Assembly (NCBI RefSeq): GCF_002499975.2
Contig: NZ_CP052766.1
Location: 3,038,001-3,102,000, forward strand
Source: Alteromonas pelagimontana
GTDB taxonomy: Bacteria > Pseudomonadota > Gammaproteobacteria > Enterobacterales > Alteromonadaceae
Direction of reading: 5' to 3'
DNA: 64,000 nt
The translations under genes were made by a program, and so were the position numbers. Below the pieces are notes generated by a model. That model made no database searches. It saw nothing but the letters and a program-made list of their open reading frames with translations, and was not told where the DNA came from. This document shows positions 29,652 through 44,773 of the stretch, piece by piece (the stretch's first letter is position 1; each line of letters opens with the position of its first letter).

Positions 29652-29860
29652 AAAGGAGCAGGCAGTCAGTAAATCGAAGCTGTATGTTGCCAATAAGTAC
29701 ATGAATTGAGAAAAAATGACAAATAAATCCCTTAGAAATAAGGGGTTTCATGTAGATTAAAAATTATTTATTGACTGCAAAATTTTTCGGCTCCAAATCC
29801 ACTACTATAAGAAAGAACGGGTAACCCCAGAATGGATTAAGTAGTCTCAAGGAGCCACAA

Positions 29861-30043: not shown

Positions 30044-30259
30044 CCTGGCGGTTGAATAGCCGCTATAGGCGTATCGCAGCGTTACCGACTTCGCGTTGAG
30101 GAGAACGCGGGTATCCATTCCACTCCGTTTCGCCAGTAAATGATCAACCTAATCCCTTCGCTGATTGCGTGAGGTCCTATGTCCTTGACGCAGAATCAGC
30201 CAAAAAGGTGGTAGTTCGCAACTGACGCCATGCTACTAAAAAATGTAATTTTTTTCGGC

Positions 30260-30283
30260 GGGACGCTATTGCGTCCCTTCTTA
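30260..30283 (+). terminator. Rho-independent terminator
   Basis: GGGACGC (30260-30266), a TATT loop and GCGTCCC (30271-30277) are followed by TTCTTATTCTTT. It works best for rightward transcription from the integrase/alpA side and separates it from the converging phosphatase operon. Confidence 0.6.
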
Positions 30284-30287
30284 TTCT

Positions 30288-31622
30288 TTACGACGAAGTT
30301 CGACGGTCCAGTAAGTCGAAAATATGCTTTGCAATATCGGTGTTGTCAATCTGGCCTGTAAAGAGCTGGCTCTGTTTACCAAAGGCGAAAACTTCAACGT
30401 CTGTGCCGGTATGTCCGGTAGTGGTCCAGCCGGTATTCGTTCGCTTGTCTATGATGTATTTTAGTACTTTTTCTACTTCCTCTACAGAAAGTAATTTAAC
30501 TTGCTCAAGTTGAGCTGTTTCTTGCGCATTTAACGTAAAGCCGAGTTTATCGCTGACATATGATTCAACATCTGCGGCTTTAACCAAGTCCTTAGAAATA
30601 GCAGTAACAGAAGCGCTTATTCTGTGCAAAGGGGCCGGGTCCCAATGATATTCCCCGTCGGCACCAATCGTTAACCCTCCGGTATTGTGGTCTGCGGTTA
30701 ATATCACGAGCGTGTCGGGGTGCGCTGCCACATAGCTTTGGAGATAATCCAGCGTTTGAGCGAGATCATCCATTTCGGCAACCACTGAGGCAATATCATT
30801 ACTATGACCTGCCCAGTCAACCTGACTTGCTTCTACCAGTAAAAAAAATCCGTTGGGATTCTCTAAAAAGCGAATAGCGTGTTTGGTTAAAAACGCAAGA
30901 CGATCATCCTTGGGATCATCAAGTGCAGGTGGTAATCCCACTTCTGCGAACAAACCCAATACATTACTGCCCTCGTCAATTTTTAACAAATCATCGTATT
31001 GTTCTGCAAACTCATAACCGGCGTTGATGAATTCAGCAGTTACATCCCTGTCTTCTCGATTAAAGTACCGCGTTCCACCACCCAGCATAACATCAGCTAT
31101 TAATTGATTATCGACACGGCTATCGAAAAAACTATCCGCTATTTGCGGATAGTTTTGTCTGCTTTCATTATGCGCAATATAAGCGGCAGGAGTGGCGTGA
31201 TTAATTTGAGAAGTTACGGCTAAGCCAGTGCGTAAACCCAGGGTTTTTGCGCGTTGTAGCACTGATTCAACGGGTTGCTTGTTGACGTCCACGCCTATGG
31301 CACCGTTGTAAGTTTTTATACCGGTCGCTAGCGCGGTCGCTGCGGCTGCGGAATCTGTTACATACCCAGACTCGGATGCCGGGTAGGTTGATGCATTTCC
31401 AACAAAGATGTCGTCAAATATTACCGGCTCAACCATATCGGTGTTCGGATCATCAGAAAAGTTGCGGTAAGCCGTGGTATAGGCGGGGCCCATACCATCT
31501 GCGATAACCATAATAATATTTCGTGGAAATTGCCTCGCTTCTTCTGTGTTTTGTTGTGGCTTAGCCATTGCTGAGGAACAGTTTGCTACGGCTAGGAAGA
31601 GTAAAAGCAAAAATCGTTTCAT
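30288..31622 (-). CDS. Alkaline phosphatase, exported
   Basis: This 444-residue enzyme has a signal peptide (to about residue 20, with a Cys at 15 that could alternatively be lipidated). Metal and catalytic residues of the PhoA superfamily are present: Asp42 in IADGMG, the nucleophile Ser91 in VTDSAAAATALATG, DWAGHSND, TADHNTGG and TTGHTGTDV. It releases phosphate from monoesters in the periplasm. It is the last gene of the leftward unit behind the TonB receptor and follows the EEP gene by 32 bases. With its neighbours it probably strips phosphate from products made by the phosphodiester-cleaving enzymes. Confidence 0.9.
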   Translation of the reverse strand: MKRFLLLLFLAVANCSSAMAKPQQNTEEARQFPRNIIMVIADGMGPAYTTAYRNFSDDPNTDMVEPVIFDDIFVGNASTYPASESGYVTDSAAAATALATGIKTYNGAIGVDVNKQPVESVLQRAKTLGLRTGLAVTSQINHATPAAYIAHNESRQNYPQIADSFFDSRVDNQLIADVMLGGGTRYFNREDRDVTAEFINAGYEFAEQYDDLLKIDEGSNVLGLFAEVGLPPALDDPKDDRLAFLTKHAIRFLENPNGFFLLVEASQVDWAGHSNDIASVVAEMDDLAQTLDYLQSYVAAHPDTLVILTADHNTGGLTIGADGEYHWDPAPLHRISASVTAISKDLVKAADVESYVSDKLGFTLNAQETAQLEQVKLLSVEEVEKVLKYIIDKRTNTGWTTTGHTGTDVEVFAFGKQSQLFTGQIDNTDIAKHIFDLLDRRTSS

Positions 31623-31654
31623 TGTTACATCCCAATGCGTTACTGAGCTGGTGA

Positions 31655-32629
31655 TTACCAGCTCAGGGTTGCGTTTAATGAAAAGTGATCAGTCAGCAAG
31701 CAGCTATTGTCGACGAATGGTCGATCCAGTTGCAGGCTTGTGGTGAAAGCGGTGTTCGCGCTACGCAGGAAGATGTAATCCATGCGAGCGTAATTTGCTC
31801 CGGTTGCTTTAAATGAGCATGTATTGTTGTTCCAGCAAGCGCCCGCGTAACTGCCTAACTCGCTAAATCCAGAGTTATCTAAAGCATTAACCATATCCTG
31901 GTAGGCTTGTTGGTGGTCAGCACCATTACATAACCCTCCTGAAGGGCATAACGTCTTGTGTAATCCATCACGGTAAATATTGAAGTCTCCGGCAATAACG
32001 ACATTTACCGTCGGATCAAGTGTGTCAACATAATTGAGTACTTCATCAAGCTGTTGCTGTGCTACCAGCGGATCGCCCGCTGTAAAATGTGTATTAATCA
32101 CCCAAAACCATTCACCATCGGCGTTAACTTTGACGGACTGGTAGACTTGATTGTGTGGATCGTCATTAACCTGGTGGAAACGGGTGGTGGACTTCTGTAA
32201 AGAGGCGCTCGAAAGTGTGGCAATACCATACTGACCATTACGGTAAGGAATACCTGAAAAATGGCTGGTCCATTGCCAATTATATATTCCGTTAGACTGC
32301 ATATATTGGTTGAGGTGGTTGGCAAAATATTCTGGCATATTCCAGCCAATGTTGCGTTGAGTGAGTACATCTACTTCTTGTAGCAGTAAAAGACTTTGGT
32401 CACTACCGTAACTGTAATTATCCACGGCTATCTGACCCAGGTAACGACGCAATCCCACTATGGTGAGATCATTGTTGCTACCAAACTGACTGTGGGTGCA
32501 AAGACCCTGGTAATTCAAACCTTTTGTACCTGCTCCTATGTTGAGACTGGTAATCGACAGTTCACCGGCTTGTGCATTAATGCTAACGCAGCCAAACAGG
32601 GCTAATAATATAAACAGATAACGCTTCAT
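31655..32629 (-). CDS. Exported endonuclease/exonuclease/phosphatase (EEP, DNase I-fold) protein
   Basis: This 324-residue protein has a signal peptide (cleaved near NAQA, residue 21) and the metal-dependent EEP motifs in order: SLNIGAG, LLQEVD, NTHFTAGD, IAGDFNIY, ARMDYIF and LTDHFSLNA. EEP enzymes cut phosphodiesters or phosphomonoesters in DNA, sphingomyelin or inositol phosphates, and the substrate cannot be read from the motifs. Several Cys pairs (LCPSGGLC, ACWNNNTC) suggest disulfides. It lies between another EEP gene and the alkaline phosphatase in the same leftward unit. Confidence 0.85.
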   Translation of the reverse strand: MKRYLFILLALFGCVSINAQAGELSITSLNIGAGTKGLNYQGLCTHSQFGSNNDLTIVGLRRYLGQIAVDNYSYGSDQSLLLLQEVDVLTQRNIGWNMPEYFANHLNQYMQSNGIYNWQWTSHFSGIPYRNGQYGIATLSSASLQKSTTRFHQVNDDPHNQVYQSVKVNADGEWFWVINTHFTAGDPLVAQQQLDEVLNYVDTLDPTVNVVIAGDFNIYRDGLHKTLCPSGGLCNGADHQQAYQDMVNALDNSGFSELGSYAGACWNNNTCSFKATGANYARMDYIFLRSANTAFTTSLQLDRPFVDNSCLLTDHFSLNATLSW

Positions 32630-32699
32630 TTCCTTCTCCTTAACGGATTTCCCACTGACACTCAGCTTTTTAGGAAGTTATAGGTTCTCGAAAGTATTG

Positions 32700-33536
32700 C
32701 TATTGATTGAGGTATTCCAATTCCACTACATAAGGGCGATGGTCGGACAGATTGGGGAAGGCCAGAACTTCAGTGCTGAGCACCCGCCAGCTATCCTTTG
32801 GATAAAATGCGACATAATCAATTTTTTTGGTGGGGTTTGATGCCGGGAAAGTCAGATTCGTGCCCTCCGGATCCGATAATTGCCAGGTTTGGCTTAGAAC
32901 CTTGATGCTTTCACTGCCGAGTACAGCATTGAGATCGCCGGCCAGAACAGCTGGACGCTGATTGTCAGTTGCCAGGGTGTTAAGCTGATATGCTGAGTCT
33001 ACGCGGGCAAGTCTTTCCCAGGCATCAAAGTGAGCACTATATAAATCCACCTGAATATCACTGGGAATTGTGATTGTTCCCTTGGCTGCGCTGCGAGGCT
33101 CTCCACCTTCCGCTAATTGAAGGGTAGTTGTTTCAACGAAAGAGGTCTTACTAAGCAGTGCATTACCGTAATGTCCATTGTCGTATTCCATAGCAGGACC
33201 AAAGCTGGCTTCATAGCCGGTCAGATTAGCCAAAATAGCGACCATGTCGAGACCGCCACTGCGGTCGGTGTTCATGTCGACTTCCTGTAAGGCAACGATA
33301 TCGGGGGCGGCAAGCTCAATTAATTTGGCAATAGATTCAAGGTTTATCTCGCCATCGGCGTTACGACCCGCCTGGATGTTAAACGCCATGATCTTCAAAG
33401 CCATCTTACTTTCAGTTGGCGGCTCCTCTTTTACAGGCGGCGATATATCACTACTGCTGTCATCGGAATCGCATCCTGCCAAAAGCAACAGCCCCATTAA
33501 AAAGGCGGCAATAGCAGGTAACTTTTTTATGTTCAT
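32700..33536 (-). CDS. EEP-family lipoprotein
   Basis: This 278-residue lipoprotein has lipobox LLLAGC (Cys about residue 22), a Ser/Asp/Pro linker (residues 23-44) and a full EEP domain: IMAFNIQAGRN, ALQEVDMNTDR, SAHFDAWE, LAGDLNAV, KKIDYVAF and LSDHRPYVVELE. All the metal and catalytic positions appear to be kept. It is probably anchored in the outer membrane beside the TonB receptor encoded upstream. The substrate is likely a phosphodiester or phosphomonoester; a GlcNAc-phosphate polymer is an inference from context. Confidence 0.85.
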   Translation of the reverse strand: MNIKKLPAIAAFLMGLLLLAGCDSDDSSSDISPPVKEEPPTESKMALKIMAFNIQAGRNADGEINLESIAKLIELAAPDIVALQEVDMNTDRSGGLDMVAILANLTGYEASFGPAMEYDNGHYGNALLSKTSFVETTTLQLAEGGEPRSAAKGTITIPSDIQVDLYSAHFDAWERLARVDSAYQLNTLATDNQRPAVLAGDLNAVLGSESIKVLSQTWQLSDPEGTNLTFPASNPTKKIDYVAFYPKDSWRVLSTEVLAFPNLSDHRPYVVELEYLNQ

Positions 33537-33611
33537 AGTTGAGCTCTCTTAATACAGACGCGCTTGCTCTTACTGCGTGAAAAAAGTAAAAGCAGCGGCA
33601 AGACTGATACT

Positions 33612-33638
33612 GCCGCATACCCGCAAGGAGTATGCGGC
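33612..33638 (-). terminator. Intercistronic hairpin after the TonB receptor gene
   Basis: GCCGCATAC pairs perfectly with GTATGCGGC around a 9-base loop, starting 14 bases after the receptor's stop codon. There is no U-tract, so it may lower but not stop transcription into the EEP genes, or protect the receptor mRNA. Confidence 0.5.
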
Positions 33639-33651
33639 TTGTAGTCGTTAA

Positions 33652-36321
33652 TCAGAACTTATAGGTAATACCTACTTTGTAGTTGCGGCCTTCATTACGA
33701 TAGCGGTATAAAGCGCCGTCTGGCCTTACGTCGGTGAAATCTTCAGAAGTTAAATTGGTGCCTGATGCATACAGTTCCAGGTTGTCGTTTACAAAGTAGC
33801 GGACCTTTGCAGACAAATCGGTTCGGGACAGGCGAATAAGATCATTGGCTTCATTGGCGACATCAAAGCCAACGGGTTTTTCGCCGGTATAGGAGTAAAT
33901 AATTCTGGCATCAAAAAGCTCACCGGAATAGTAAACAGCTACGTTCGCCAGTTTTTCTGGTTGAGTGAGCAGGAAGCCCGGGTCCTGACGGCTTGAAGAG
34001 TCAGGTACTTTAAAATCACCAGACATCAGCGTGCCGTTAATATTTACCCCCAGGTTGTCCCATGGAGCCGGTAAAAAGGTCAGCTCTTTCATTACATTAA
34101 GTTCGAAGCCGGAGAGACGTGCGCTTTGGGAGTTCACTTTCTGGGAAATCGTCATGTCATAGACCTGACCATCTATAGTAAGTTCGTCCATCTCACGCAG
34201 TGTGATGATTTCGTCTTTAATATCTTTGTAGAAATAGCCTGCGGAGATAAGCCCGTCGGTAATGACCCAATCAGCATAAACATCATAGTTGTTAGATGAG
34301 CGGGGTTTTAAGTCAGGATTAGAGCGAGTAATCGAGCCCACGCCCGTTTCACTCAAGTCCAGCACCTCGCCTAGAGGGGCAAGATCAACATAGTCTGGAC
34401 GAGCAATGGTTTTGCTATAAGTAGCGCTAAGCCGCAGATCATCCGTTAGATGATAATTAATGCCAGCTGAGGGCAGCAGTTTAGCGTAATCATTACTCAG
34501 AGAGGATGCTATCCAATCGCCGTTTTCCAAACGGTACCCTGTTCCGGAATAGTCAGTGTCCTCATATCGCAGGCCGGCGTGGGCAAAAAAATCATCACTA
34601 TTGTACTCAGCTTTTGCATATGCACTGCTGATGGTCTCATCAAGCGTGTAGTCACTTGAGTAGTCATTGCTGTCGGAGGTCATCAGGGTGAACAAATTGG
34701 CATCCGACACGTGAGAGCTGATTAAACTGTTACGTAAACCGAGATCTCCAAACATCGCGCGCCTGTTTGAGTTCATACCGGGATAGGGCACATTAGGCGG
34801 ATCCACATAGATAGTCGCTAGGGTAAACTGTTCAGCGCCCGCATCAGTAGTACGGTATTCGTGTTTATTGTAATCGTAGCTGCGATCAGAAGTGGTGTAT
34901 TTTGCACCAACCTTAAAGCCAAGTCCGTCCGCGACTTTACCTGTGTTCCAACTGTAGTTTAATGCTAAGTCAATCATGTCAGCATCAGTTTCGCGCGGAT
35001 TATACTGATCGTTTTGCAGATGGTATTTTTCGGGCGCATAAAAGGTATCGAGGGTCTGTCCATCGGTTTCTACCAATCCAATGGTTGGCAAACTGGGGTT
35101 GGATTTATCGTAGAAAAAAGTCGCCCGTTCCGGAGTATGGAAAAAGAGACTATAACGGTCCAATCGGCTTTCCGTTGCCTTAGAGTAGCTACCTTTTACT
35201 TCTAAAAATCCCAGGTCCCCAATGAGCTTTTCGTATCCCGCCTGGATAAACCCCATATCTGAATCAGTGTTAATGGTGGCGATCTCGGCAAAGTGTGCGC
35301 CGCCGTATACGCCATCTTCGGTGCTTTCATCGACGGTGACATAACCGGTATTTTCATCGATTGGATCAATGCTGTAGGTCCCGGACGTGATCCGCTCGTC
35401 AGACTTGTAATGGTATTTGGTAAACTCAGTTTTATTAAACCCGGCAGCCAGCCAGAGCGTGGTGGATTCATCTAATAAATAATCAACAGTTGTGCTGAGG
35501 TTAACGCGTTCAATGTCGGTGGTTTCGAAGGCTAATCTATACTCACGGGGAATGGTAATGCCATCAATCGTTGTGCTGCGTGAACGCGGCAAAGTCGATG
35601 GTTGCGAGCGCGCCCTTTGATTATATGATGCAGAAACGGAAACGCCGAGCTTTTCTGTTAACTTAGAAGCATAGGTTAAATCAATATTGAACGGCAGCTT
35701 ACGGTCTTCTACAGATTCATCGATTTCAGCAAATCCGACACCTCCTGTTGCGATGAATATCGGTTTGTCAAACTCTGAACCACGGCGAGATACAAAGTTA
35801 GTTACCCCGCCGATGGAACCACCCTGGTCACTGGCGGTGAACGTTTTGAAGACCTCGATACGCTTAGCCAGATTGCTTGGAAACAGATCAAAATACTGAG
35901 AACGGCTGCTCGCATTGGGGGTTGCAACATTCAGATCGTTTAAAGTGGTTAAGTTCCAATCTGGATTGATACCGCGAATGGTAACAAATCTGTTTGTAAT
36001 CGTTTCACCGTTCCCCTGGATAGTAATCGCGGGGAGGGAAGTAAGTGTCTCTGCGGCATTTTCGCCGGCAAATGATGCAGCCTCGTCTTCACTAATTGAA
36101 TCGACAAACTTGTCAGTCGACAGTTTGGTTGCAATGGCTTTTGTGGTTTGCAAGCGACTACCCACCACATTAATTTTTTCCACCGTCTCCTGATCAGCTT
36201 GTACTGGATTCTCGCTTGACGTTTGAGCCTCGGCCGTAAAAGCAAGGCTGACGAGCAACGCACATAACGTTGGCTTGAACTGTGGTGACGCAGGGATCCT
36301 GGACGGATTAGATGCTTTCAT
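33652..36321 (-). CDS. TonB-dependent outer-membrane receptor
   Basis: This 889-residue protein has a signal peptide (cleaved near AEAQ, residue 32), a plug domain (ETLTSLPAITIQGN, FVTIRGINPDWNLTTLNDLN, IEVFKTFTASDQGGSIGGVT) and a 22-strand barrel that ends in a Phe (YKVGITYKF). It resembles receptors for oligosaccharides in marine gammaproteobacteria. GAGGA lies before the ATG. A 23-bp palindrome 40 bases upstream is shared with the ROK gene and the divergent GlcNAc operon, so it is probably induced together with them. Confidence 0.9.
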   Translation of the reverse strand: MKASNPSRIPASPQFKPTLCALLVSLAFTAEAQTSSENPVQADQETVEKINVVGSRLQTTKAIATKLSTDKFVDSISEDEAASFAGENAAETLTSLPAITIQGNGETITNRFVTIRGINPDWNLTTLNDLNVATPNASSRSQYFDLFPSNLAKRIEVFKTFTASDQGGSIGGVTNFVSRRGSEFDKPIFIATGGVGFAEIDESVEDRKLPFNIDLTYASKLTEKLGVSVSASYNQRARSQPSTLPRSRSTTIDGITIPREYRLAFETTDIERVNLSTTVDYLLDESTTLWLAAGFNKTEFTKYHYKSDERITSGTYSIDPIDENTGYVTVDESTEDGVYGGAHFAEIATINTDSDMGFIQAGYEKLIGDLGFLEVKGSYSKATESRLDRYSLFFHTPERATFFYDKSNPSLPTIGLVETDGQTLDTFYAPEKYHLQNDQYNPRETDADMIDLALNYSWNTGKVADGLGFKVGAKYTTSDRSYDYNKHEYRTTDAGAEQFTLATIYVDPPNVPYPGMNSNRRAMFGDLGLRNSLISSHVSDANLFTLMTSDSNDYSSDYTLDETISSAYAKAEYNSDDFFAHAGLRYEDTDYSGTGYRLENGDWIASSLSNDYAKLLPSAGINYHLTDDLRLSATYSKTIARPDYVDLAPLGEVLDLSETGVGSITRSNPDLKPRSSNNYDVYADWVITDGLISAGYFYKDIKDEIITLREMDELTIDGQVYDMTISQKVNSQSARLSGFELNVMKELTFLPAPWDNLGVNINGTLMSGDFKVPDSSSRQDPGFLLTQPEKLANVAVYYSGELFDARIIYSYTGEKPVGFDVANEANDLIRLSRTDLSAKVRYFVNDNLELYASGTNLTSEDFTDVRPDGALYRYRNEGRNYKVGITYKF

Positions 36322-36360
36322 CGTGTATTCCTCTACAGATTTGTTTTATAGCTATTGTGA

Positions 36361-36383
36361 TTTATTACCGCAGCGGTATTTAA
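36361..36383. promoter_or_regulatory. ROK-type operator, site 1 (TonB receptor)
   Basis: TTTATTACC-GCAGC-GGTATTTAA, containing the 13-bp perfect palindrome TACCGCAGCGGTA (36366-36378). It lies 40 bases before the receptor start and matches three sites around the ROK gene and the phosphodiester glycosidase gene. Confidence 0.6.
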
Positions 36384-36725
36384 TTAAAAGTATGTGACAT
36401 TAAGATTAAAATTACACCATTTTTTGGTGAAAAAGTTGTAACTATCTGATTGTAAAAGTAATAAAGCCTATTTTTTGAGCTATTATTTCGGTTTTAGAGG
36501 TTTTTTTATTACGGGGAAACAATATTTTTGTGGTTTTTAAATTTTGCTAGGGGATTTAATGGGGGCTGGAGAGTTTGGCTGTGGTGAGGCCGTACATGTG
36601 AGGCGATGTCGAGCTTGTTGTGTTAGTTCGGTAGCGGCTGGAAACTGTAGGCGCAAATGGGGTGAGTCAGTTTAGATAAGGTGACGGAGAACGTTTAGTT
36701 AATCTTGCTAAACGGTTTCTCACAG
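36384..36725. other. AT-rich intergenic region between the receptor and the ROK gene
   Basis: It lies between the start of the receptor gene and the end of the ROK gene, both read leftward. It should hold the receptor promoter. No gene is seen. Confidence 0.4.
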
Positions 36726-37862
36726 TTACCGATTGAAGAAGTAAAACGCGGGAATAGAAGTCACGCCAAGCTCCAGTATATTGCTGCCTCCCGATACGTA
36801 GATTGTGGGCTTGGGTGCAGTCAGGCCGCCAAAGGATGGTGCGGCAATGTGAATATTCTCCGACAATTTTTTCTGTAGCGCGTCAGGTAATCTGCCGGCA
36901 AAGATAATGGCTTCGGGATCCAACAGACTTTGAATTGCCTTCAAGGGGTATTTCATCGATTCAACACAGGACATCGTCCAGGATTCGATGATTGGGTCAC
37001 CTTTTGCAATGGCTTTTTCAATATCACCATAATCTGTCGGCTGCGCGGCCGCATCGCTGTAATATTGTTGCAAGGAACCAATAGTAGGTCGTGGCATACT
37101 TGCATTTGAGTTAAACAAAGCCGCTATTTCCCCAGCGTTCCCATAAGCTCCGTCTACTAACTGCCCATTAAATACAAACCCACCACCAACATCCAGCGTG
37201 AACAATAATAGGAAGAAACTCTGAAATGTTGCCCCCTCTTGGGTTTGGGAAAAGCCGATAGACGCTGCGTTACCATCATTTTCCACAAAACAGGGGCAAT
37301 TGAAACGCTCAGCGAACATAGCCTGGAAATTAATTTGTGACCATCCGACAGGGTCCTGTTGAGAACAAATTTGTCCTTCAATATTCATAAAAAAACCGGA
37401 GATCGAGACGCCAATACCTAGTACTGTGATCGAATCTTCGATGGTTGCGAATAGTTTTTCGAGCATGTCTTGAGCTAACTTTGTAGCCCTGGCGGCAGAT
37501 AAAAAAGTACCGTGTTCGGTAAATTTCAGAATATTTTTACAATTGAAGTCATCCAGTACAACGGTTATGCGGTCGTGTTCAAACACCACACCCACACAGC
37601 AAAAGCGCTTCTCTGTGATGGTAAGGTAAATCGCAGGCTGGCCCCGATGTCCTTCAACTCTGGAATGCTCTGAAATAAGATCTAGTTGCATCAGTTGCTT
37701 GGTTAGACGCGTCAGCGATTGGGTAGACAGCCCGGTCTCTTTAGCAATTTGTGCTCGAGTCGCTTTTTTATTACGGCGAATAATTTCCAGCACCCGCTTA
37801 TGGCTGCTGTTAAGTTCCGACTCGAGTCCGGAAATAGGCGTGTTACGAGGTTGGTGATGCAA
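36726..37862 (-). CDS. ROK-family transcriptional regulator (NagC/Mlc type)
   Basis: This 378-residue protein has an N-terminal winged helix-turn-helix (NKKATRAQIAKETGLSTQSL, TRLTKQLMQLDLI) and a ROK sugar-kinase-like domain (GVSISGFFMN, FVENDGNAASIGF, LDVGGGFVFNGQLVDGAYGN). The zinc motif CxCGxxGC of most ROK proteins is absent; the region after GNAGEIAALF has no cysteines. The start is a TTG with AGAGGA 7 bases ahead. It lies between the two halves of the GlcNAc/phosphate cluster, and four similar palindromes there are its likely operators, so it is the probable repressor, with GlcNAc or a phosphate derivative as effector. Confidence 0.88.
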   Translation of the reverse strand: MHHQPRNTPISGLESELNSSHKRVLEIIRRNKKATRAQIAKETGLSTQSLTRLTKQLMQLDLISEHSRVEGHRGQPAIYLTITEKRFCCVGVVFEHDRITVVLDDFNCKNILKFTEHGTFLSAARATKLAQDMLEKLFATIEDSITVLGIGVSISGFFMNIEGQICSQQDPVGWSQINFQAMFAERFNCPCFVENDGNAASIGFSQTQEGATFQSFFLLLFTLDVGGGFVFNGQLVDGAYGNAGEIAALFNSNASMPRPTIGSLQQYYSDAAAQPTDYGDIEKAIAKGDPIIESWTMSCVESMKYPLKAIQSLLDPEAIIFAGRLPDALQKKLSENIHIAAPSFGGLTAPKPTIYVSGGSNILELGVTSIPAFYFFNR

Positions 37863-37956
37863 TTGAAGATCCTCTTGTTACGGCAAACTAGCTGCCTTCC
37901 TTGTCTTCTTAATTTAGCAACAGAGAGGTTTACAATCCACAGGTAAATCTTCCTAT

Positions 37957-37979
37957 CTAAGTATTGCTTCGGTATTTAT
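37957..37979. promoter_or_regulatory. ROK-type operator, site 2 (ROK gene)
   Basis: CTAAGTATT-GCTTC-GGTATTTAT, a less perfect version of the shared palindrome, 95 bases before the ROK start. It suggests autoregulation. Confidence 0.45.
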
Positions 37980-38051
37980 TTTTGGACTCTCGTTTCTTCT
38001 CTAAAACTTAATTGCCTTAAAATCAAACTCTTATGACATTTATGTGAAAAC

Positions 38052-38074
38052 TTAAGTATCGAAACGGTATAAAA
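38052..38074. promoter_or_regulatory. ROK-type operator, site 3
   Basis: TTAAGTATC-GAAAC-GGTATAAAA, immediately upstream of the -35 box of the rightward operon. It differs from site 4 mainly in the outer right half. Confidence 0.5.
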
Positions 38075-38078
38075 ACGA

Positions 38079-38107
38079 TTGACTTAACTCAACTGCTCGC
38101 CTAGATT
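38079..38107 (+). promoter_or_regulatory. Sigma-70 promoter of the phosphodiester glycosidase-nag operon
   Basis: TTGACT (38079-38084), a 17-base spacer and TAGATT (38102-38107). Operator sites lie on both sides, one of them overlapping the -10 box. Confidence 0.65.
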
Positions 38108-38128
38108 AAGTACCGCGGTGGTACTTAA
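38106..38128. promoter_or_regulatory. ROK-type operator, site 4 (perfect palindrome)
   Basis: TTAAGTACC-GCGGT-GGTACTTAA: the 9-base arms are perfect inverted repeats. It overlaps the -10 box and the transcription start of the rightward operon, a typical repressor position. Confidence 0.65.
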
Positions 38129-38267
38129 CTGGATTTTTAGCAAGTTTTTTCTGATTCCGGAATCATGCAACACGCGTTGAGCAGAGGCTGCCTCTTAACC
38201 GCGTTTGTATTTTCGTTTTTTCTCGCAGTAGAGTTGGTTCTCCTCTGCACTGATGATGAGAGTAGAT

Positions 38268-39887
38268 ATGTTCTATAAAATGCCCGCAGTTATTGTGCTG
38301 GCACTTGCGGCGGCGATTCCTGTGTTTGCGAAGGACTTTGGATTGCCTGACAGCTTAGCTGGATTCAGCCTGACGGAATCGGATCGCATTCAACTGCATC
38401 CCGGTCTGGTGTTTTATTCACTCAGCCACTCTAGCGGTAATGATCAGTATGTTCTTTCCGGGCCTCTGACTTCAATGCAGGACGCGAGTCACCAGATGGT
38501 GCAAGTCAATGCTGTGCTAGATACCAACAAGGACAGTGTCTTTGAGGCAGAGGTAGAAAACGCCGGTGCCATTGGCAAAGACAATTTTGATGTTGGTTAC
38601 AGATTAGTAGTAAGTGGTTTTGCAAACCCCGTGGTGGCGCAGCAGGTACTGCACGATCTGGGGGAGCATGCGAATAAATTCACCATACATCATCATTCTT
38701 CTTTCCCCGGAACGCCTGCTAACCAGCAGCTCAGTGTACTGGAAGTCATCCCCGAGAAGTTTCGCGGAAGCGTACAGATGAAGTTGGCTAAAGATCAGGT
38801 TGAAGGGGTCGAAGTGGTATCAGAAATGGTGGCGCGTACATCTGCTGTGGCAGGAGTTAACGGTGGCTTTTTTGTTTATAAAAAAGCACTTGGGGTCATT
38901 GGCGACCCTGCTGGTCTGGCGATTATTAATGGTCAGCTAATCAGCGAAGCAGTCGCCCATCGTCCAGCATTGCTAATTCAACAAGAACCGCAATTACGTT
39001 TTGAAGTGCTACCTGATGTAACTACTCAATTGCGCTTGCAGGCAGAGGGTCGCTCACTACCTGTAAATGGCATCAACAGGGAGCCCGGCAAAGTATTTAA
39101 CTGCGGATTTTACAAAGAGGCGTCTTTGGTTTCATCAGCCCACGACACCGTGTGTCACAGCCTGGATGAAATAGTAGTACTTACTTCTGATTATGGTCAG
39201 TTACCAGACTTATCACCTTTGGCAGCAATGGCATATATCGATCATGCGGGGCAAATAAAACCAGTTTCAACTTTTGAAAAAAAAGCACTACCTGAAAAGC
39301 ATCTTTTAGTTATTGCTACCGGAGATAAACGCCAGGCTTTAACCAGGTTCACCGCCAGCAGCGACAGCGCAACAATGGAATTCGAGGTGTTCAGTAATGG
39401 TGAGCTGGTAACTATCGACGCCGGTACATCGCTAATAAACGGCGGGCCGACGCTCCTATTGAACGGGGCAAAACCAGTTGATCTTTGGCAGCAGGAGGGT
39501 TGGTCTCCCTTACATGCAGAGGGTGTTCTAAGCCAGGATGAAAAAGACGATATTGCATCCGACCCGGTTGCCAGAGGCAAGAGGGCAGTATTTTTCGATG
39601 GTTGGGTAAATAAACGTCATCCAAGAACCGCGGTGGGCATAGCGCCTGACGGGACTGCATATTTTGTAGTCGCTTACGGTCGGGATCCAACAAAAAGCGC
39701 TGGGTTAACCATATATGAAATGGCGCAGGTACTTTCTGACTTAGGAGCCGTCCGGGCAATCAACCTGGATGGTGGAGGTTCAAGCGTGATGATTGTAAAT
39801 GGAAAAGCGACCGGCATGCCCTCGGATCGCAGCGGTGAGCGGGCGGTCGCAGATGCACTGCTTGTTTTGCCGCCTTCAGAAGATTAA
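38268..39887 (+). CDS. Exported phosphodiester glycosidase (NAGPA / uncovering-enzyme domain)
   Basis: This 539-residue protein has a signal peptide (cleaved after PVFA, about residue 21) and a C-terminal NAGPA domain: AGVNGGFFVYKK, HPRTAVGIAPDG, AINLDGGGSSVMIVNG and SGERAVADALLV. The domain's animal member removes GlcNAc from GlcNAc-alpha-1-phospho-6-mannose, and bacterial members cut phosphodiester-linked sugars. The roughly 180 N-terminal residues are of unknown fold. The ATG at 38268 has GAGAG 5 bases ahead; ATGs at 38253 and 38256 have none. It is the first gene of the rightward operon and probably frees GlcNAc from a phosphodiester in the periplasm for its neighbours to use. Confidence 0.85.
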   Translation: MFYKMPAVIVLALAAAIPVFAKDFGLPDSLAGFSLTESDRIQLHPGLVFYSLSHSSGNDQYVLSGPLTSMQDASHQMVQVNAVLDTNKDSVFEAEVENAGAIGKDNFDVGYRLVVSGFANPVVAQQVLHDLGEHANKFTIHHHSSFPGTPANQQLSVLEVIPEKFRGSVQMKLAKDQVEGVEVVSEMVARTSAVAGVNGGFFVYKKALGVIGDPAGLAIINGQLISEAVAHRPALLIQQEPQLRFEVLPDVTTQLRLQAEGRSLPVNGINREPGKVFNCGFYKEASLVSSAHDTVCHSLDEIVVLTSDYGQLPDLSPLAAMAYIDHAGQIKPVSTFEKKALPEKHLLVIATGDKRQALTRFTASSDSATMEFEVFSNGELVTIDAGTSLINGGPTLLLNGAKPVDLWQQEGWSPLHAEGVLSQDEKDDIASDPVARGKRAVFFDGWVNKRHPRTAVGIAPDGTAYFVVAYGRDPTKSAGLTIYEMAQVLSDLGAVRAINLDGGGSSVMIVNGKATGMPSDRSGERAVADALLVLPPSED

Positions 39888-39916
39888 CTGTGCCGATGAT
39901 TAATAAAGAGAGATAT

Positions 39917-40816
39917 ATGTATTACAATTCAGAACGCCTTTACCTGGGCATTGACGGCGGTGGAACGAAATGTAAAGCGGTGTTGATTGACGACTACCAC
40001 AGTATCCTGGGTATAGGCGTTGCCGGTGCTGGTAATCCGGTTTATGGTTTGCAGAAGGCTAAGAACTCCATTGTTGAATCTGCGTTAAAAGCATTGGAAG
40101 CTGCGCAACGAAACATTCCAAAACTTAGTGGGCTGCAACTTAACAATATTCCTGCCGGCCTTGGTTTGGCCGGTGTCAATATTCCCGCATTTTTTTCTCA
40201 GATCGCAGACTGGGAGTCACCATTTCATTCGCAGTATCTCACTACGGATTTATCTGTTGCCTGTCTGGGGGCTCACAACGGTACAGATGGCGCAGTTATA
40301 GTATCAGGAACCGGAACATGTGGTTTCGCTACTGTCGCTGGAGAGTCCTTTATGTTAGGCGGCCATGGATTTCCGCAAGGCGATAAGGGCAGTGGCGCCT
40401 GGTTCGGAATGCGGGCGGTGCAGTCAGTATTGCTGTCTATGGATAGGCTGGGACCACAGACCAGAATTACCCATCATCTTTTTAATCACCTGAATACCCA
40501 AAGTGCCAATGACATTATTTCTTACGTTGCAACTAAATCCCCGTCTAAGTTTGCGGGCTTGGCGCATTGCGTATTTCAAGCTGCGGTAGAGCAGGATGCA
40601 ATTGCTCAAACCATTCTGGATGAAGGTGTAGGTTATCTGGAGAACATGGCCGATAGCTTACTGGCACATGATCCACCCCGGCTTTCCTTCATCGGGGGGA
40701 TGGCGGACACCATTAAAGAATTTTTATCTTCTGAACTTCAGGAGAAACTGGCAAAACCGATTCATCCGCCTGAAGTTGGGGCTGCCCTTTTTGCAAAAAA
40801 CAGTATCGCGAAGTAG
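39917..40816 (+). CDS. BadF/BadG-type N-acetylglucosamine kinase
   Basis: This roughly 299-residue sugar kinase of the ASKHA fold shows YLGIDGGGTKCKAVLID (phosphate 1), GLAGVNIP, VSGTGTCGFAT (phosphate 2), GDKGSGAWFGMRAV and FIGGMADTIKEFL (adenosine). BadF-type GlcNAc kinases make GlcNAc-6-phosphate in the cytoplasm. The ATG at 39917 has AAAGAGAG ahead; a GTG at 39890 and an ATG at 39896 are also in frame. It lies between the glycosidase and the SIS gene in one operon. Confidence 0.85.
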   Translation: MYYNSERLYLGIDGGGTKCKAVLIDDYHSILGIGVAGAGNPVYGLQKAKNSIVESALKALEAAQRNIPKLSGLQLNNIPAGLGLAGVNIPAFFSQIADWESPFHSQYLTTDLSVACLGAHNGTDGAVIVSGTGTCGFATVAGESFMLGGHGFPQGDKGSGAWFGMRAVQSVLLSMDRLGPQTRITHHLFNHLNTQSANDIISYVATKSPSKFAGLAHCVFQAAVEQDAIAQTILDEGVGYLENMADSLLAHDPPRLSFIGGMADTIKEFLSSELQEKLAKPIHPPEVGAALFAKNSIAK

Positions 40817-40831
40817 AGGTTTGTAAACATT

Positions 40832-41830
40832 ATGACTCAATCAATAATGGAGCAGGAGGCGTTACAAACAGCCTCTGTAGTCGAGCACCAGATTAGACGT
40901 AATATAGACGTAGTGGAAAGACTGGTTAGTCACCTTAAACATCTTGATCCGACCATGGTGATGTTAATTGGCCGGGGATCGTCTGATCATGCCGGAGTGT
41001 TTGCAAAATATTTAATAGAAGTTGAATTAAACATACCAACTTTTGCTGCAGCCCCCTCCGTATCCAGCGTGTTTAAACAACAGCTTCGATTGAAAGGGGC
41101 TGTGGCAATTATTATCTCTCAATCCGGCCGCAGTCCCGACATTATTTCACAAGCTGAAATGGCGAAAGCCGGCGGAGCCTACTGTATTGCGATAGTAAAT
41201 GATGAAAGCTCACCGTTGGCCGAACTGGTTGATGCAGTGATCCCCATTTGTGCAGGCGAAGAGCAGTCCGTGGCTGCCACCAAAAGCTTCCTGGGTACCC
41301 TGTCAGCATTAGTACACCTGGTATCAGTGTGGTCTGACAATCGCACGCTGTATAACGAGTTTCAACGTTTGCCAGGAGCATTAGTTAATGCTGCAGCAGA
41401 CTCGGTCCAGTTACAACCTGACGATTTTGCTTCCACAACAAGTTTGGTTGTACTAGGACGTGGCTTTGGGTATGCCATAGCGAAAGAAATTGCGCTAAAA
41501 ATGAAAGAGGTATGTTGTATCCAGGCGGAAGCCTTTAGTAGTGCTGAATTTTCTCATGGCCCCATCACGCTGGTCTCTCGCGGTTTAACTGTGTTGAACT
41601 GTAATATTATGGATGAAAGTTACCAGTCTCACGCAACGCAGGTGGCAGAAGTTAAAAACAGAAAAGCCACGGTATTAGAACTTAATGCTGCCAGCAAGAA
41701 AACTCACCCACGCCTTTTGCCACTATTAGTGTTACAGCGTTTTTATATAGATGTGGCACGAATATCTGTCAGTCTGGGGTTAAACCCCGATAGTCCCCAA
41801 GGGTTGAAGAAAGTCACTGAGACATTGTGA
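40832..41830 (+). CDS. nagB-II: SIS-domain glucosamine-6-phosphate deaminase (NagB-II type)
   Basis: This 332-residue protein has two SIS domains but no glutaminase domain: MLIGRGSSDHAGVFAKY, SQSGRSPDIISQ, AATKSFLGTL, LGRGFGYAIAKEIALKMKEV and AEFSHGPITLV. It corresponds to the sugar half of GlmS and to the NagB-II deaminase of Shewanella, which turns glucosamine-6-phosphate into fructose-6-phosphate and ammonia. No classical nagB is in the window. Its stop overlaps the nagA start (TGATG), so the two are translationally coupled. Confidence 0.87.
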   Translation: MTQSIMEQEALQTASVVEHQIRRNIDVVERLVSHLKHLDPTMVMLIGRGSSDHAGVFAKYLIEVELNIPTFAAAPSVSSVFKQQLRLKGAVAIIISQSGRSPDIISQAEMAKAGGAYCIAIVNDESSPLAELVDAVIPICAGEEQSVAATKSFLGTLSALVHLVSVWSDNRTLYNEFQRLPGALVNAAADSVQLQPDDFASTTSLVVLGRGFGYAIAKEIALKMKEVCCIQAEAFSSAEFSHGPITLVSRGLTVLNCNIMDESYQSHATQVAEVKNRKATVLELNAASKKTHPRLLPLLVLQRFYIDVARISVSLGLNPDSPQGLKKVTETL

Positions 41831-42996
41831 TGAGCTCGGATGGCATTTTGAGAATAAAAACTAAATCACTCTTTGATGGCGCGACTACTCAAACAAATGT
41901 GGTAATGCATATTAATGATGGCGTAGTCAGCGCCATGGAGAAAAATGGCAGTCACTTTGATGTAGAACTGGAAGGATTGTGCGTACCTGGCTTTGTTGAT
42001 GTGCAGGTTAACGGAGGTGGCGGTGTGTTATTTAATGATGCACCGACGGTCGCTTCGATAGCCGCGATTACCTCGGCGCACGCCAGATATGGTACCACAG
42101 GGATGTTACCTACGATTATCACTGATGACATCTTGAAAATGGAAGTTGCAGCGGATGCTGTGGCCCAGGCTCTCCGTCGACGAATCCCCGGTGTACTGGG
42201 TATTCATTTTGAAGGACCTCACATCGCGCAGGCTAAAAAGGGGGCTCACAGCGCACAGTTTATCCGCTCACTCTCGTCGGCCGAATTAGATATTTTTACA
42301 CGTAAGGATATCGGAAGGGTAGTAGTTACCCTGGCACCTGAGTGTGTGAGCGAGGCAGATATAAAACGGTTGACCGACGCTGGGGTAATTGTCTCGCTGG
42401 GGCACACCAATGCCAGCTTTGATTGCGCCCAGCGTGCATTTGAAGCTGGTGCAACCGGAATTACTCATTTATTTAACGCCATGTCTGCGCTTACCAGTCG
42501 CGAGCCTGGAGTTACTGGTGCCGCGCTGCTTTCCGATAAGACATTGTGCGGTTTGATTCTGGATGGACACCATGTGTCAGCGAAAACTTGTCAGCTAGCG
42601 CTGAGAGCCAAACCTGCTGGTGGCATCTTTCTGGTTACTGACGCTATGCCTCCTGTTGGCTCATCCGTTGACCGGTTTGAATTCTTTGACCGGGAAGTTT
42701 ATCTCGTTGATGGTGAGTTACGATCCACCACCGGTGAGTTGGCAGGCTCTGCCCTGAACATGGTAGGTGCAGTAAAAAACTGTATTCATCTCCTTGACCT
42801 TTCTCTTGAAGAAGCCATTCGAATGGCAAGCCTGTATCCCCTGATGTTTTTAGCGGGTAAAAGCCAGTTGCCAATAAAACCAGAGCCATTGATTACTGTA
42901 GGGGCGCCAGCTTCCTTTGTGCAGTTAACGGCAAATAGAGATGTGGCCTCAACCTGGATTGACGGTCACCAAATATACGCTGCAAACGCCAGATAA
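41830..42996 (+). CDS. nagA: N-acetylglucosamine-6-phosphate deacetylase
   Basis: This 388-residue amidohydrolase takes the acetyl group from GlcNAc-6-phosphate. Motifs are DVQVNGGGGVLFND (with the Gln that replaces the first metal His in this family), GIHFEGPHIAQ, VSLGHTNASFDCA, THLFNAMSALTSREPG, LILDGHHV and FLVTDAMPPVG. The ATG at 41830 shares its A with the upstream TGA; a GTG at 41827 is possible. It lies between the deaminase and the transporter in the operon. Confidence 0.93.
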   Translation: MSSDGILRIKTKSLFDGATTQTNVVMHINDGVVSAMEKNGSHFDVELEGLCVPGFVDVQVNGGGGVLFNDAPTVASIAAITSAHARYGTTGMLPTIITDDILKMEVAADAVAQALRRRIPGVLGIHFEGPHIAQAKKGAHSAQFIRSLSSAELDIFTRKDIGRVVVTLAPECVSEADIKRLTDAGVIVSLGHTNASFDCAQRAFEAGATGITHLFNAMSALTSREPGVTGAALLSDKTLCGLILDGHHVSAKTCQLALRAKPAGGIFLVTDAMPPVGSSVDRFEFFDREVYLVDGELRSTTGELAGSALNMVGAVKNCIHLLDLSLEEAIRMASLYPLMFLAGKSQLPIKPEPLITVGAPASFVQLTANRDVASTWIDGHQIYAANAR

Positions 42997-43020
42997 AATG
43001 CTAGCAAACGTGAGAACTAT

Positions 43021-44376
43021 ATGAAGTTTAGTAATAAAACCAATATCCAATCAGTTATTTCAATGACAATAATCGGCATCTTATTTTTTATTTTTGGCTT
43101 CGTCACATGGCTGAATGGCTCGCTTATTCCGTTTTTACAGATAATCTGTGAGCTCGATGAGTTTGAAGCATTACTGGTCACGTTTTCTTTTTATATTGCA
43201 TACACAGTTATGGCCTATCCAATGTCCATGATCCTTTCTCGCTCTGGATACAAGAACGGGATGGCCATCGGGTTGTTGATTATGTCTGTGGGAGCCTTAC
43301 TGCATATCCCTGCTGCTTTGAGCGGAATTTATTCGTTATTTTTACTGGCTTTATTTGTGCTGGCTACCGGCCTTACTATTCTACAGACTGCCTCTAACCC
43401 CTATCTGGTTTATCTTGGACCGGAAAAAAGTGCGGCAATGCGAATTAGTATTATGGGTATCGTAAATAAGGGCGCTGGAGTAGTTGTTCCTATTATATTT
43501 ACGGCACTTATTTTATCTGACATTGGCGATATATCTAAAAGCTATGTGATGTCCTTATCGGATGAGCAATTTCTGATCTATAAAGAAACGCTCTCACAAA
43601 AGCTCATAATGCCTTATACCATAATGGCGGGAGTGTTATTTGTACTGATTGGATTACTAAAGTTTGCACCGTTACCTGAGATCCAGCCCACAAGTGATCC
43701 TAGCGGCAGTATTGCGACAGCCGAAAAGAAATCTTCAATTTTAAATTATCCTCAGGCAGTGCTGGGTGCTTTTGCATTATTTGCTTATGTGGGGGTTGAG
43801 GTAATCGCCGGCGATACGATAGGCTTGTATGGTGCATCACTGGATGTCCCTAATTTCTCCGGATTAACTTCCTATACCATGTTTTTTATGGTTATAGGTT
43901 ATGTGCTTGGCATCATTTGTATTCCGCGTTTTATTTCACAACAAAAAGCGTTAACTCTTTCTGCAGTGGCAGGGAGTGCCTGCATCGTGGGGATTATTAC
44001 AGCTTCGCCGGACTCAGTAAGTCTGTCTCAGTTACTGTGGGGCTGGACAGGAATTCCGGTATTGCCGAACCCGGTGACATGGGTCGCATTAATGGGGCTC
44101 GCTCACGCATTGGTCTGGCCATCCGTATGGCCCCTGGCTTTAAAAGATCTTGGGCAGCACTCAGCTCAGGGTTCTGCGCTCCTTATTATGGGAATATCCG
44201 GAGGGGCGATTTTGCCGCTGGTATTCGGTAAAATTTCATCCGCCACCGGCGACTTACAACTTGCATATCTTGTAGGCTTGCCGTGCTATTTGTTCATACT
44301 TTTCTATGCGCTGAGAGGCCATAAAATTCGCCGTTGGCCATGGTCTGCGAGTACGAGCTCAATGGGAAAGCGATAA
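43021..44376 (+). CDS. nagP: FHS-family sugar:proton symporter (NagP-like)
   Basis: This 451-residue inner-membrane MFS protein has 12 predicted helices and belongs to the fucose-glucose/galactose-GlcNAc symporter family. Visible features are FFIFGFVTWLNGSLIPFLQ (helix 1), NPYLVYLGPEKSAAMRISI, YVGVEVIAGDTIG and WPSVWPLALKDLG. NagP in Shewanella and Xanthomonas relatives imports GlcNAc. It is the last gene of the rightward operon, so free GlcNAc made in the periplasm has a way in. Confidence 0.85.
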   Translation: MKFSNKTNIQSVISMTIIGILFFIFGFVTWLNGSLIPFLQIICELDEFEALLVTFSFYIAYTVMAYPMSMILSRSGYKNGMAIGLLIMSVGALLHIPAALSGIYSLFLLALFVLATGLTILQTASNPYLVYLGPEKSAAMRISIMGIVNKGAGVVVPIIFTALILSDIGDISKSYVMSLSDEQFLIYKETLSQKLIMPYTIMAGVLFVLIGLLKFAPLPEIQPTSDPSGSIATAEKKSSILNYPQAVLGAFALFAYVGVEVIAGDTIGLYGASLDVPNFSGLTSYTMFFMVIGYVLGIICIPRFISQQKALTLSAVAGSACIVGIITASPDSVSLSQLLWGWTGIPVLPNPVTWVALMGLAHALVWPSVWPLALKDLGQHSAQGSALLIMGISGGAILPLVFGKISSATGDLQLAYLVGLPCYLFILFYALRGHKIRRWPWSASTSSMGKR

Positions 44377-44773
44377 ATTGGTGCATCTTGTTATAGCAAT
44401 GGCCAACGGGAAAGATGGTGACTATCAGATTGGTTGCCGTTTTACTATTTACTACTTTATAGGCCGATGCTCACGTGATGCAATCGACAACTTCCACATG
44501 TTGACTCTCTTTGCCCAGTAAATGAGGACATAATTAAAAGGTCAGTTATGGGAAGAAAACCGTTTGCCTTCAATATCGGAAATATAAACTGCACTTGGCT
44601 TAGAGATACTAAGGGAAGACTTTGCTAGTCTCATTTTTTCGATAAAAATCAGCATAAATGAGCCGTGCGAGAGGGACTAATATCAACTTGTCAGGAGATG
44701 TTGTCAGATTTCATACAATATTGCAGGCAGTATTTGTTTCCTATGCTACATGCTCACAATCTATAGCTAATTC
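44377..44773. other. Intergenic region between nagP and the IS5-type element
   Basis: I see no gene, repeat or clear terminator in this AT-rich stretch. Confidence 0.4.

What the first reader, a model, noticed from the sequence alone, without database searches (positions are those of the whole stretch)
30288..44376. Two-sided locus that looks built to use GlcNAc-1-phosphodiester glycans
On one side of a ROK repressor: TonB receptor, two exported EEP-fold proteins, alkaline phosphatase. On the other: an exported NAGPA-type phosphodiester glycosidase, a BadF-type GlcNAc kinase, NagB-II, NagA and a NagP-like transporter. The set has every step from outer-membrane uptake to fructose-6-phosphate but no chitinase or hexosaminidase, while it has three or four phosphoesterases. 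That points to a substrate in which GlcNAc is held by phosphodiester (teichoic-acid-like polymer, capsule or LPS phosphodiester, or phosphoglycan of algae), giving carbon, nitrogen and phosphate together. I know of no described pathway of this exact make-up.
Basis: partly seen in the sequence, partly recalled or inferred. Interest (0 to 1): 0.85.

Follow-up and report, generated by a model that had tools for sequence, protein, structure and literature searches.

The report
Mobile GlcNAc-phosphodiester utilisation gene cluster
A probably marine bacterium carries, on a mobile DNA island, a jointly controlled gene set that seems built to eat an amino sugar held to phosphate, which could feed it carbon, nitrogen and phosphorus at once.

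Summary
A 23-bp palindrome (TTAAnTACC-N5-GGTAnTTAA), learned only from relatives, has its two strongest window matches at the promoters of the NAGPA-nag operon and of the TonB-EEP-EEP-phosphatase block. The genome has another GlcNAc cluster, beside a GH20, elsewhere; this is a second, separately regulated set. The core (ROK // TonB-NAGPA-NagK-[NagB-NagA]-NagP) recurs in 7 of the 8 other NAGPA loci found in 395 family genomes; 6 of the 7 end with a phosphatase, and the eighth locus has PhoD but no nag genes. The window's phosphatase has a separate, genus-type origin. The EEPs and the TonB type are peculiar to the window. Everything rides on a ~19.8-kb island in a tRNA-Met gene. Best reading: a regulon for GlcNAc-1-phosphodiester glycans; anatomy and regulation are well supported, the substrate is inferred. 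Bolder: NAGPA and phosphatase alternately strip a GlcNAc-1-phosphate polymer. Against: loci were found through NAGPA, so cassettes without it would be missed; five relatives have no other NagB-II. No activity or structure was obtained.

The parts
28105..47929 (.). integrative island (~19.8 kb) inserted in a tRNA-Met gene; carries the whole locus
   Evidence: 20-bp direct repeat at 28105-28124 and 47910-47929; the left copy ends a 48-base tRNA 3'-half remnant, the right copy lies in intact tRNA-Met 47882-47958; the joined empty site matches 76-77 of 77 bases in 9 of the 11 loci from other genus genomes that were held
28341..29651 (+). tyrosine integrase
   Evidence: Phage_integrase, arm and core domains over cut-off
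30288..31622 (-). exported alkaline phosphatase, PhoA family
   Evidence: PF00245 E 1e-90; nearest solved structure 3a52 cold-active AP; groups with genus-type PhoAs, not with the six cassette APs
31655..32629 (-). exported EEP-fold phosphoesterase B (324 aa), rare family
   Evidence: PF03372; 3 homologues reported; no match at E 1e-20 in 215 other family genomes; EEP motif residues conserved by eye
32700..33536 (-). EEP-fold phosphoesterase A (278 aa), putative lipoprotein (LLAG-C)
   Evidence: PF03372 E 1.9e-21; lipobox read by eye
33652..36321 (-). TonB-dependent outer-membrane receptor
   Evidence: TIGR01782 over cut-off; 27-30% identical, over partial alignments, to 7 receptors at other NAGPA loci; of these, L017's is 74-95% identical to five of the other six compared and 40% to the sixth
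36361..36383 (-). predicted ROK operator in the TonB/EEP/EEP/AP promoter
   Evidence: 1 mismatch; score 26.0 with a matrix trained on relatives only, 0 of 200 simulated windows reach it
36726..37862 (-). ROK-family regulator with winged-helix DNA-binding domain
   Evidence: PF00480 plus MarR_2/HTH_24; 60-69% identical to the ROK of 7 cassettes
37957..37979 (+). weak third operator-like site (4 mismatches)
   Evidence: PWM score 14.2; 12 of 200 simulated windows reach it
38052..38074 (+). second operator-like site, 54 bp upstream of the main one
   Evidence: 3 mismatches; score 17.6, 3 of 200 simulated windows reach it; a site (up to 4 mismatches) 53-54 bp upstream of the main one is seen in 8 of 8 promoters
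38106..38128 (+). main predicted operator, overlapping the end of the -10 box of the NAGPA operon
   Evidence: 0 mismatches, the only perfect site in the genome; score 30.9; -10/-35 read by eye
38253..39887 (+). exported NAGPA-family phosphodiester glycosidase
   Evidence: PF09992 109 bits, cut-off 25; only PF09992 match in the genome; shares RTA-G, NLDGGGS and PSD with solved NAGPA 6pku
39890..40816 (+). NagK, BadF-type GlcNAc kinase
   Evidence: NF046058 380 bits, cut-off 370
40832..41830 (+). NagB-II glucosamine-6-phosphate deaminase
   Evidence: NF046059 505 bits, cut-off 430
41827..42996 (+). NagA GlcNAc-6-phosphate deacetylase
   Evidence: TIGR00221 259 bits, cut-off 226; the other NagA model NF008371 271 bits, below its 483 cut-off
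43021..44376 (+). NagP-like inner-membrane sugar symporter
   Evidence: TIGR01272 over cut-off; NF046060 490 bits, below its 625 cut-off

Best explanation
The locus is one ROK-controlled catabolic regulon, carried on a tRNA-Met integrative island, for using a glycan in which alpha-GlcNAc is held by a phosphodiester. Proposed route: the TonB receptor brings GlcNAc-phosphate-containing oligomers into the periplasm. The EEP proteins cut phosphodiesters within the polymer (an addition seen only in the window). NAGPA cuts GlcNAc from its 1-phosphate, leaving a phosphomonoester on the next unit, and the alkaline phosphatase removes it. GlcNAc enters through the NagP-like symporter and becomes fructose-6-phosphate plus ammonia and acetate through NagK, NagA and NagB-II; phosphate is released in the periplasm. 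A GlcNAc-derived ligand presumably lifts ROK from operators that overlap the core promoter. Shown here at sequence level: gene families, shared operator-like sites, conservation, separate origins of the phosphoesterases, island insertion. Inferred: that ROK binds those sites, the substrate, the order of steps, the inducer.
For: Families confirmed. The core gene order is found in 7 of the 8 other NAGPA loci read in the family. An operator matrix trained on 21 sites from 7 relatives and none from the window puts its five best window positions all inside the two regulatory regions; the TonB-side site beats all 200 simulated windows, the fifth is only at the simulated mean. In six genomes scanned whole (the window's and 5 of the 8 relatives) the perfect operator occurs once, at this locus, and every 1-mismatch site also lies there. 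A phosphoesterase stands in the cluster in 8 of 9 family loci counting the window: AP in 7, PhoD in 1. The window AP groups with genus-type PhoAs while six cassette APs are set apart by a 100/100 branch. The window's nag genes are closer to cassette nag genes than to the genome's own second nag set, e.g. NagK 49-53% against 35%. That second set lies beside a LacI-type regulator, a TonB receptor and GH20. Human NAGPA removes GlcNAc from GlcNAc-phospho-mannose and is assayed on UDP-GlcNAc (PMC12024695, part 1 of 3 read).
Against: No enzyme here has a measured activity, and bacterial PF09992 proteins may act on other bonds; the best-matching solved structure (6ozd) is only a 'putative exported protein'. 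All loci were found by searching for NAGPA, so ROK-nag cassettes without NAGPA would not have been seen. The EEPs have no relative at the other family loci. In 5 of the 8 relatives the cassette holds the only NagB-II over cut-off, so it may be their general GlcNAc operon. G180 and G654 lack NagB and NagA in the cassette and have no NagB-II over cut-off elsewhere. G140 has no relative of the window AP in the 20-kb stretch read. G062 has no nag genes beside its NAGPA. G643 has no perfect operator; its best sites have 2 mismatches.
Confidence: 0.57

Rival explanations
1. It is a general GlcNAc-utilisation operon under a ROK regulator, in which NAGPA and a phosphatase are accessories that widen the range; the main food is ordinary GlcNAc from peptidoglycan or chitin.
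For: In G121, G164, G183, G140 and G643 the only NagB-II over cut-off lies at the cassette. NagK, NagB-II and NagA match ordinary models over cut-off. Because loci were found through NAGPA, the same cassette without NAGPA may be common and unseen.
Against: The window genome already has a separate nag cluster beside GH20 and a LacI-type regulator, and no operator-like site scores above 4.8 in that 19.9-kb stretch. No other glycosidase is among the ten window genes.
Confidence: 0.22
2. The substrate is UDP-GlcNAc or other small nucleotide sugars from lysed cells: NAGPA frees GlcNAc, and EEP and phosphatase strip the nucleotide.
For: Human NAGPA is assayed on UDP-GlcNAc (PMC12024695). AP and EEP folds fit nucleotide breakdown.
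Against: A TonB receptor gene at all nine family loci, counting the window, is hard to explain for a molecule of porin size (inference), and none of the ten window genes is a nucleoside gene.
Confidence: 0.1
3. The NAGPA-family protein here cuts a bond that is not a phosphodiester (another alpha-GlcNAc glycan), and the phosphatases scavenge phosphate independently.
For: I found no tested bacterial PF09992 enzyme in what I could read; some sources name relatives 'exopolysaccharide biosynthesis protein'.
Against: Phosphoesterases of separate lineages stand in NAGPA clusters, and the window block carries the same operator-like site.
Confidence: 0.08
4. The EEP/EEP/AP/TonB block is a phosphate-starvation or extracellular-DNA scavenging unit, independent of the nag genes.
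For: AP and EEP proteins are commonly of this kind (recalled); the window AP resembles genus-type PhoA.
Against: The block's promoter carries the ROK operator-like site. A PhoB-box consensus scan gave 3 window hits against 4.9 expected, none in these promoters.
Confidence: 0.03

Closest known systems
Shewanella / Alteromonadales GlcNAc pathway (nagP, nagA, nagBII, nagK under NagR)
   Same: same enzyme types NagK, NagB-II, NagA, a NagP-like permease and an outer-membrane receptor (PMC2996990, passages)
   Different: ROK instead of LacI regulator, its own operator-like site, NAGPA as first enzyme gene, a phosphatase, no chitin hydrolase at the locus
NagC regulon (ROK) of E. coli and other Gammaproteobacteria
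   Same: ROK-family regulator of GlcNAc genes (PMC5343134 and PMC2996990, passages); several spaced operators (recalled for NagC)
   Different: far below the NagC model cut-off (66 against 650 bits); the strong sites are all local; includes NAGPA, phosphatase and EEPs
Human uncovering enzyme NAGPA (GlcNAc-1-phosphodiester alpha-N-acetylglucosaminidase)
   Same: PF09992 domain with the RTA-G, NLDGGGS and PSD signatures also in solved NAGPA 6pku
   Different: bacterial exported enzyme in a catabolic operon, with an N-terminal region that aligns to 6ozd; activity untested
Wall teichoic acid degradation by GlpQ/PhoD in Bacillus under phosphate limitation
   Same: phosphoesterases that open a phosphodiester glycopolymer for phosphate (PMC11488536, passages); PhoD occurs at one NAGPA locus, G062
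   Different: Gram-negative, TonB-linked, coupled to an amino-sugar pathway, no Pho-box-like site found

Membership tests
NAGPA family (PF09992) | profile match over the curated cut-off | tested here: met
   109 bits, cut-off 25
NAGPA family (PF09992) | conserved C-terminal signature shared with solved NAGPA enzymes | tested here: met
   RTA-G and NLDGGGS invariant in 12 aligned proteins, PSD in 11 (L022 reads PSS); 6pku has all three, 3ohg has RTS, NLDGGGS and PAD
NAGPA family (PF09992) | release of GlcNAc from an alpha-1-phosphodiester | not testable with these tools
   needs purified enzyme
Alteromonadales NagR-type GlcNAc cluster | SO3507-type NagK and NagB-II | tested here: met
   both over cut-off
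Alteromonadales NagR-type GlcNAc cluster | LacI-family NagR regulator | tested here: not met
   ROK protein; a LacI-type protein, by eye, sits at the genome's other cluster
Alteromonadales NagR-type GlcNAc cluster | NagP equivalog transporter | tested here: inconclusive
   490 bits, below the 625 cut-off, but the best-scoring model
NagC (ROK) equivalog | score over the NagC model cut-off | tested here: not met
   65.7 bits, cut-off 650
chitin utilisation locus | GH18 or GH20 in the locus | tested here: not met
   none among the ten genes; genome has one GH20 match elsewhere and no GH18 match; GH3 and GH19 not searched
Pho regulon unit | PhoB-box-like site in the promoter | tested here: not met
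   3 window hits at up to 3 mismatches against 4.9 expected, none in these promoters; the consensus is recalled and the test weak
tRNA-integrated genomic island | integrase, flanking repeat in a tRNA gene, empty site in relatives | tested here: met

The most novel reading that the evidence does not exclude
A catabolic system, not described in anything I could find, in which NAGPA and an alkaline phosphatase alternate along a poly(GlcNAc-1-phosphate) or similar phosphoglycan. Each cut by NAGPA exposes a phosphomonoester, each phosphatase step exposes the next GlcNAc, and the pair turns the polymer into GlcNAc and phosphate. In the window, endo-acting EEP phosphodiesterases are added. A mobile island spreads it as a combined carbon, nitrogen and phosphorus supply.
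Probability: 0.3. Interest if true: 0.8.

Novelty: new variant of a known kind. Interest (0 to 1): 0.62.

Why it matters
If right, it gives bacterial NAGPA-family proteins, which to my knowledge (recalled) are widely annotated but little characterised, a pathway-level role. It also points to GlcNAc-phosphodiester glycans as a food source that supplies carbon, nitrogen and phosphorus together. The predicted operator, the clear knockouts and a simple enzyme assay make it directly testable.

Tried and rejected
Rejected: that the EEPs define the system. EEP-B has 3 reported homologues in the large protein set and no match at E 1e-20 in 215 other family genomes, and neither EEP has a relative at the 8 other family NAGPA loci. 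That last test was blastp of frames of 100 aa or more against the window EEPs at E 1e-5, within 20-kb stretches; unrelated EEP families could be missed. EEP-A was not searched in other genomes.

Rejected: that the window AP is simply the cassette AP moved to the other strand; the tree groups it with genus-type PhoAs. Tree rows were chosen by similarity to the window AP (22 of the 120 listed, plus the window AP and six cassette APs), so near kin of the cassette APs are under-sampled, and the root is a midpoint.

Rejected: a wider ROK regulon. The only extra site of up to 2 mismatches in the genome lies inside a coding frame; in the six genomes the 2-mismatch sites elsewhere number no more than the reversed-pattern control.

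Withdrawn while checking: an argument that NAGPA is kept at every cassette; it is so by construction, since loci were found through NAGPA. For that reason the best explanation was lowered from 0.60 to 0.57, the general-GlcNAc rival raised from 0.20 to 0.22, and the phosphate-scavenging rival set at 0.03 instead of 0.04.

Led nowhere: a genome-contig scan with the single protein gave one locus, which has the contig length of G140's contig and is counted once with it. The NAGPA of G390 and of a Vibrio nigripulchritudo plasmid (its gene table is incomplete) show no nag genes beside them. The structure machine was busy at every try, so no fold search was made. Papers: ten searches showed no description of this gene make-up in the listings seen, which are capped; subscription papers are mostly not held.
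Full report
WHAT IS THERE. Ten genes at the stated coordinates were confirmed by Pfam and NCBIfam. On the minus strand, after the ROK gene (36726-37862): TonB receptor, EEP-A, EEP-B, alkaline phosphatase. On the plus strand: NAGPA, NagK, NagB-II, NagA, NagP-like transporter, with gaps of at most 24 bases or slight overlap, i.e. a likely operon. NAGPA, both EEPs, AP and the receptor begin with export signals, read by eye. NAGPA is the only PF09992 match in the genome.

A SECOND NAG SET IN THE SAME GENOME. The genome (4.31 Mb, one contig) holds another NagB-II over cut-off, in a run NagP-NagA-NagB-NagK next to a LacI-type regulator and a TonB receptor (these labels are by eye and by blastp) and near the genome's only GH20 match. 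No GH18 match was found; GH3 and GH19 were not searched. This resembles the layout known from Shewanella, where NagR is of the LacI family (PMC2996990, passages; PMC5343134, passages). The window set is not a recent copy of it: identity between the two sets is 35% (NagK), 53% (NagB), 41% (NagA) and 52% (NagP), whereas the window genes are 49-53%, 62%, 52-58% and 67-70% identical to the cassette genes of relatives compared.

DISTRIBUTION. NAGPA relatives (profile A1, E up to 1e-30) occur in 9 of 395 sampled family genomes including the window's own, in 2 of 394 sampled from the order (the window's and G390) and in 1 of 369 sampled from the class (the window's); the samples overlap. All 20 same-genus genomes shown in the list lack it. 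I read 20-kb neighbourhoods of all 8 other family loci. Seven have a ROK protein 60-69% identical to the window's, divergent from TonB-NAGPA-NagK-(NagB-NagA)-NagP: G121, G164, G183, G140 and G643 with NagB and NagA; G180 and G654 without. Six of these seven (all but G140) end with a relative of the window AP. The eighth, G062, has a more distant ROK (38%), then NAGPA, TonB and a PhoD phosphatase (PF09423), and no nag gene in the stretch. G164 and G183 are near-identical, so independent cases are fewer than the counts. Relatives of the window EEPs are in none of the eight. G390's NAGPA has no such neighbours, nor has that of a Vibrio plasmid in its incomplete gene table. All these loci were found by searching for NAGPA, so how often the ROK-nag cassette exists without NAGPA is unknown.

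ONE REGULON. The ROK-divergent intergenic regions of the seven close relatives share a 23-bp palindrome. I scanned six genomes whole (G000, G121, G164, G183, G140, G180; not G643, G654 or G062): the perfect form occurs once in each, at this locus, and all 1-mismatch sites lie there too, while 2-mismatch sites elsewhere number no more than the reversed-pattern control. G654 also has a perfect site at the locus; G643 does not, its best sites having 2 mismatches. In the window the perfect site 38106-38128 overlaps the end of a -10 box (TTGACT, 17 bp, TAGATT, by eye), with similar placement in relatives. The 1-mismatch site 36361-36383 stands 39 bp before the TonB start. A matrix from 21 relatives' sites (some near-duplicates), none from the window, puts the five best of all window positions inside the two regulatory regions: 30.9, 26.0, 17.6, 14.2 and 9.6. 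In 200 simulated windows the best score averaged 9.3 and never exceeded 23.6, so the first two stand out, the third was reached in 3 and the fourth in 12, and the fifth means nothing. A site of up to 4 mismatches lies 53-54 bp upstream of the main one in 8 of 8 promoters, window included, and a further one 149-183 bp upstream. This fits helical phasing and DNA looping, which is inference. The stretch with the other nag cluster has no site scoring above 4.8 and one 3-mismatch match away from the nag promoters. In G062, 3-mismatch matches lie at the ROK/NAGPA junction and before TonB (scores 7.5 and 16.5). A PhoB-box scan found nothing above chance.

PHOSPHATASE OF SEPARATE ORIGINS. The six cassette APs are set apart by a 100/100 branch. 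The window AP lies among genus-type PhoAs (100/98 for that 20-row group), 65% identical to the genome's second AP (P0036) and 50-54% to cassette APs. With PhoD in G062, phosphoesterases of three lineages stand in NAGPA clusters. This is the best comparative evidence that phosphate is part of the substrate. The caveat is that tree rows were picked by similarity to the window AP.

MOBILE ISLAND. The locus lies between a 20-bp repeat at 28105-28124 and 47910-47929. The right copy is in an intact tRNA-Met. The left copy ends a 3'-half remnant that is matched, often perfectly, across the genus genomes. Joining remnant and 5' half gives a tRNA matching 76-77 of 77 bases in 9 of the 11 loci held from other genus genomes, against 69-70 of 77 for the window's restored tRNA; the other two loci are hits to a different part of the query. 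A tyrosine integrase and an AlpA-like 60-aa frame (29861-30043; name by eye) sit beside the left end. So the set was most likely brought in as cargo. The genus is probably Alteromonas, inferred from the named homologues.

MECHANISM. Shown at sequence level: parts, regulation sites, conservation, insertion. Inferred: TonB uptake of a GlcNAc-phospho oligomer; NAGPA cutting GlcNAc from its 1-phosphate (the reaction of the human enzyme, PMC12024695, part 1 of 3 read); AP removing the exposed phosphomonoester; import, phosphorylation, deacetylation and deamination to fructose-6-phosphate. If the glycan is a chain of GlcNAc-1-phosphate units, NAGPA and AP acting in turn would suffice to take it apart, which would explain why no other sugar enzyme is among the ten genes. 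The EEPs would then be endo-acting helpers of this lineage. Sugars held by phosphodiester are known in marine bacterial LPS, e.g. glucose on heptose in Alteromonas addita (PMC4052302, passages; PMC3210612, passages); poly(GlcNAc-1-phosphate) in bacterial walls and capsules is recalled, not from a call.

LIMITS. Ten literature searches showed no description of this gene make-up in their capped listings.

Noticed in passing
28105-47929; genus genomes G149, G615, G679, G627: The tRNA-Met 3' half recurs 15.6-18.4 kb apart in these four genus genomes, suggesting this tRNA is a repeated island insertion site.
   Followed up: partly
44831-45754: IS transposase (DDE_Tnp_1) just downstream of the nagP-like gene.
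   Followed up: no
46785-47390: Calcineurin-like phosphoesterase (Metallophos) inside the island, without an obvious export signal by eye; possible link to the locus unknown.
   Followed up: no
48280-49095: MbnP-family protein, with an export signal by eye, just outside the island.
   Followed up: no
L007:17142-18641: Flavin-dependent (tryptophan-halogenase-like, by eye) protein beside the TonB receptor of the genome's other nag cluster.
   Followed up: no
L021, L052 (G180, G654): Cassettes without NagB and NagA in genomes without any NagB-II over cut-off; how GlcNAc-6-phosphate is used there is unexplained.
   Followed up: partly
L067: A conjugative Vibrio nigripulchritudo plasmid carries a NAGPA relative, 34% identical, with no nag gene in the listed neighbours.
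   Followed up: partly
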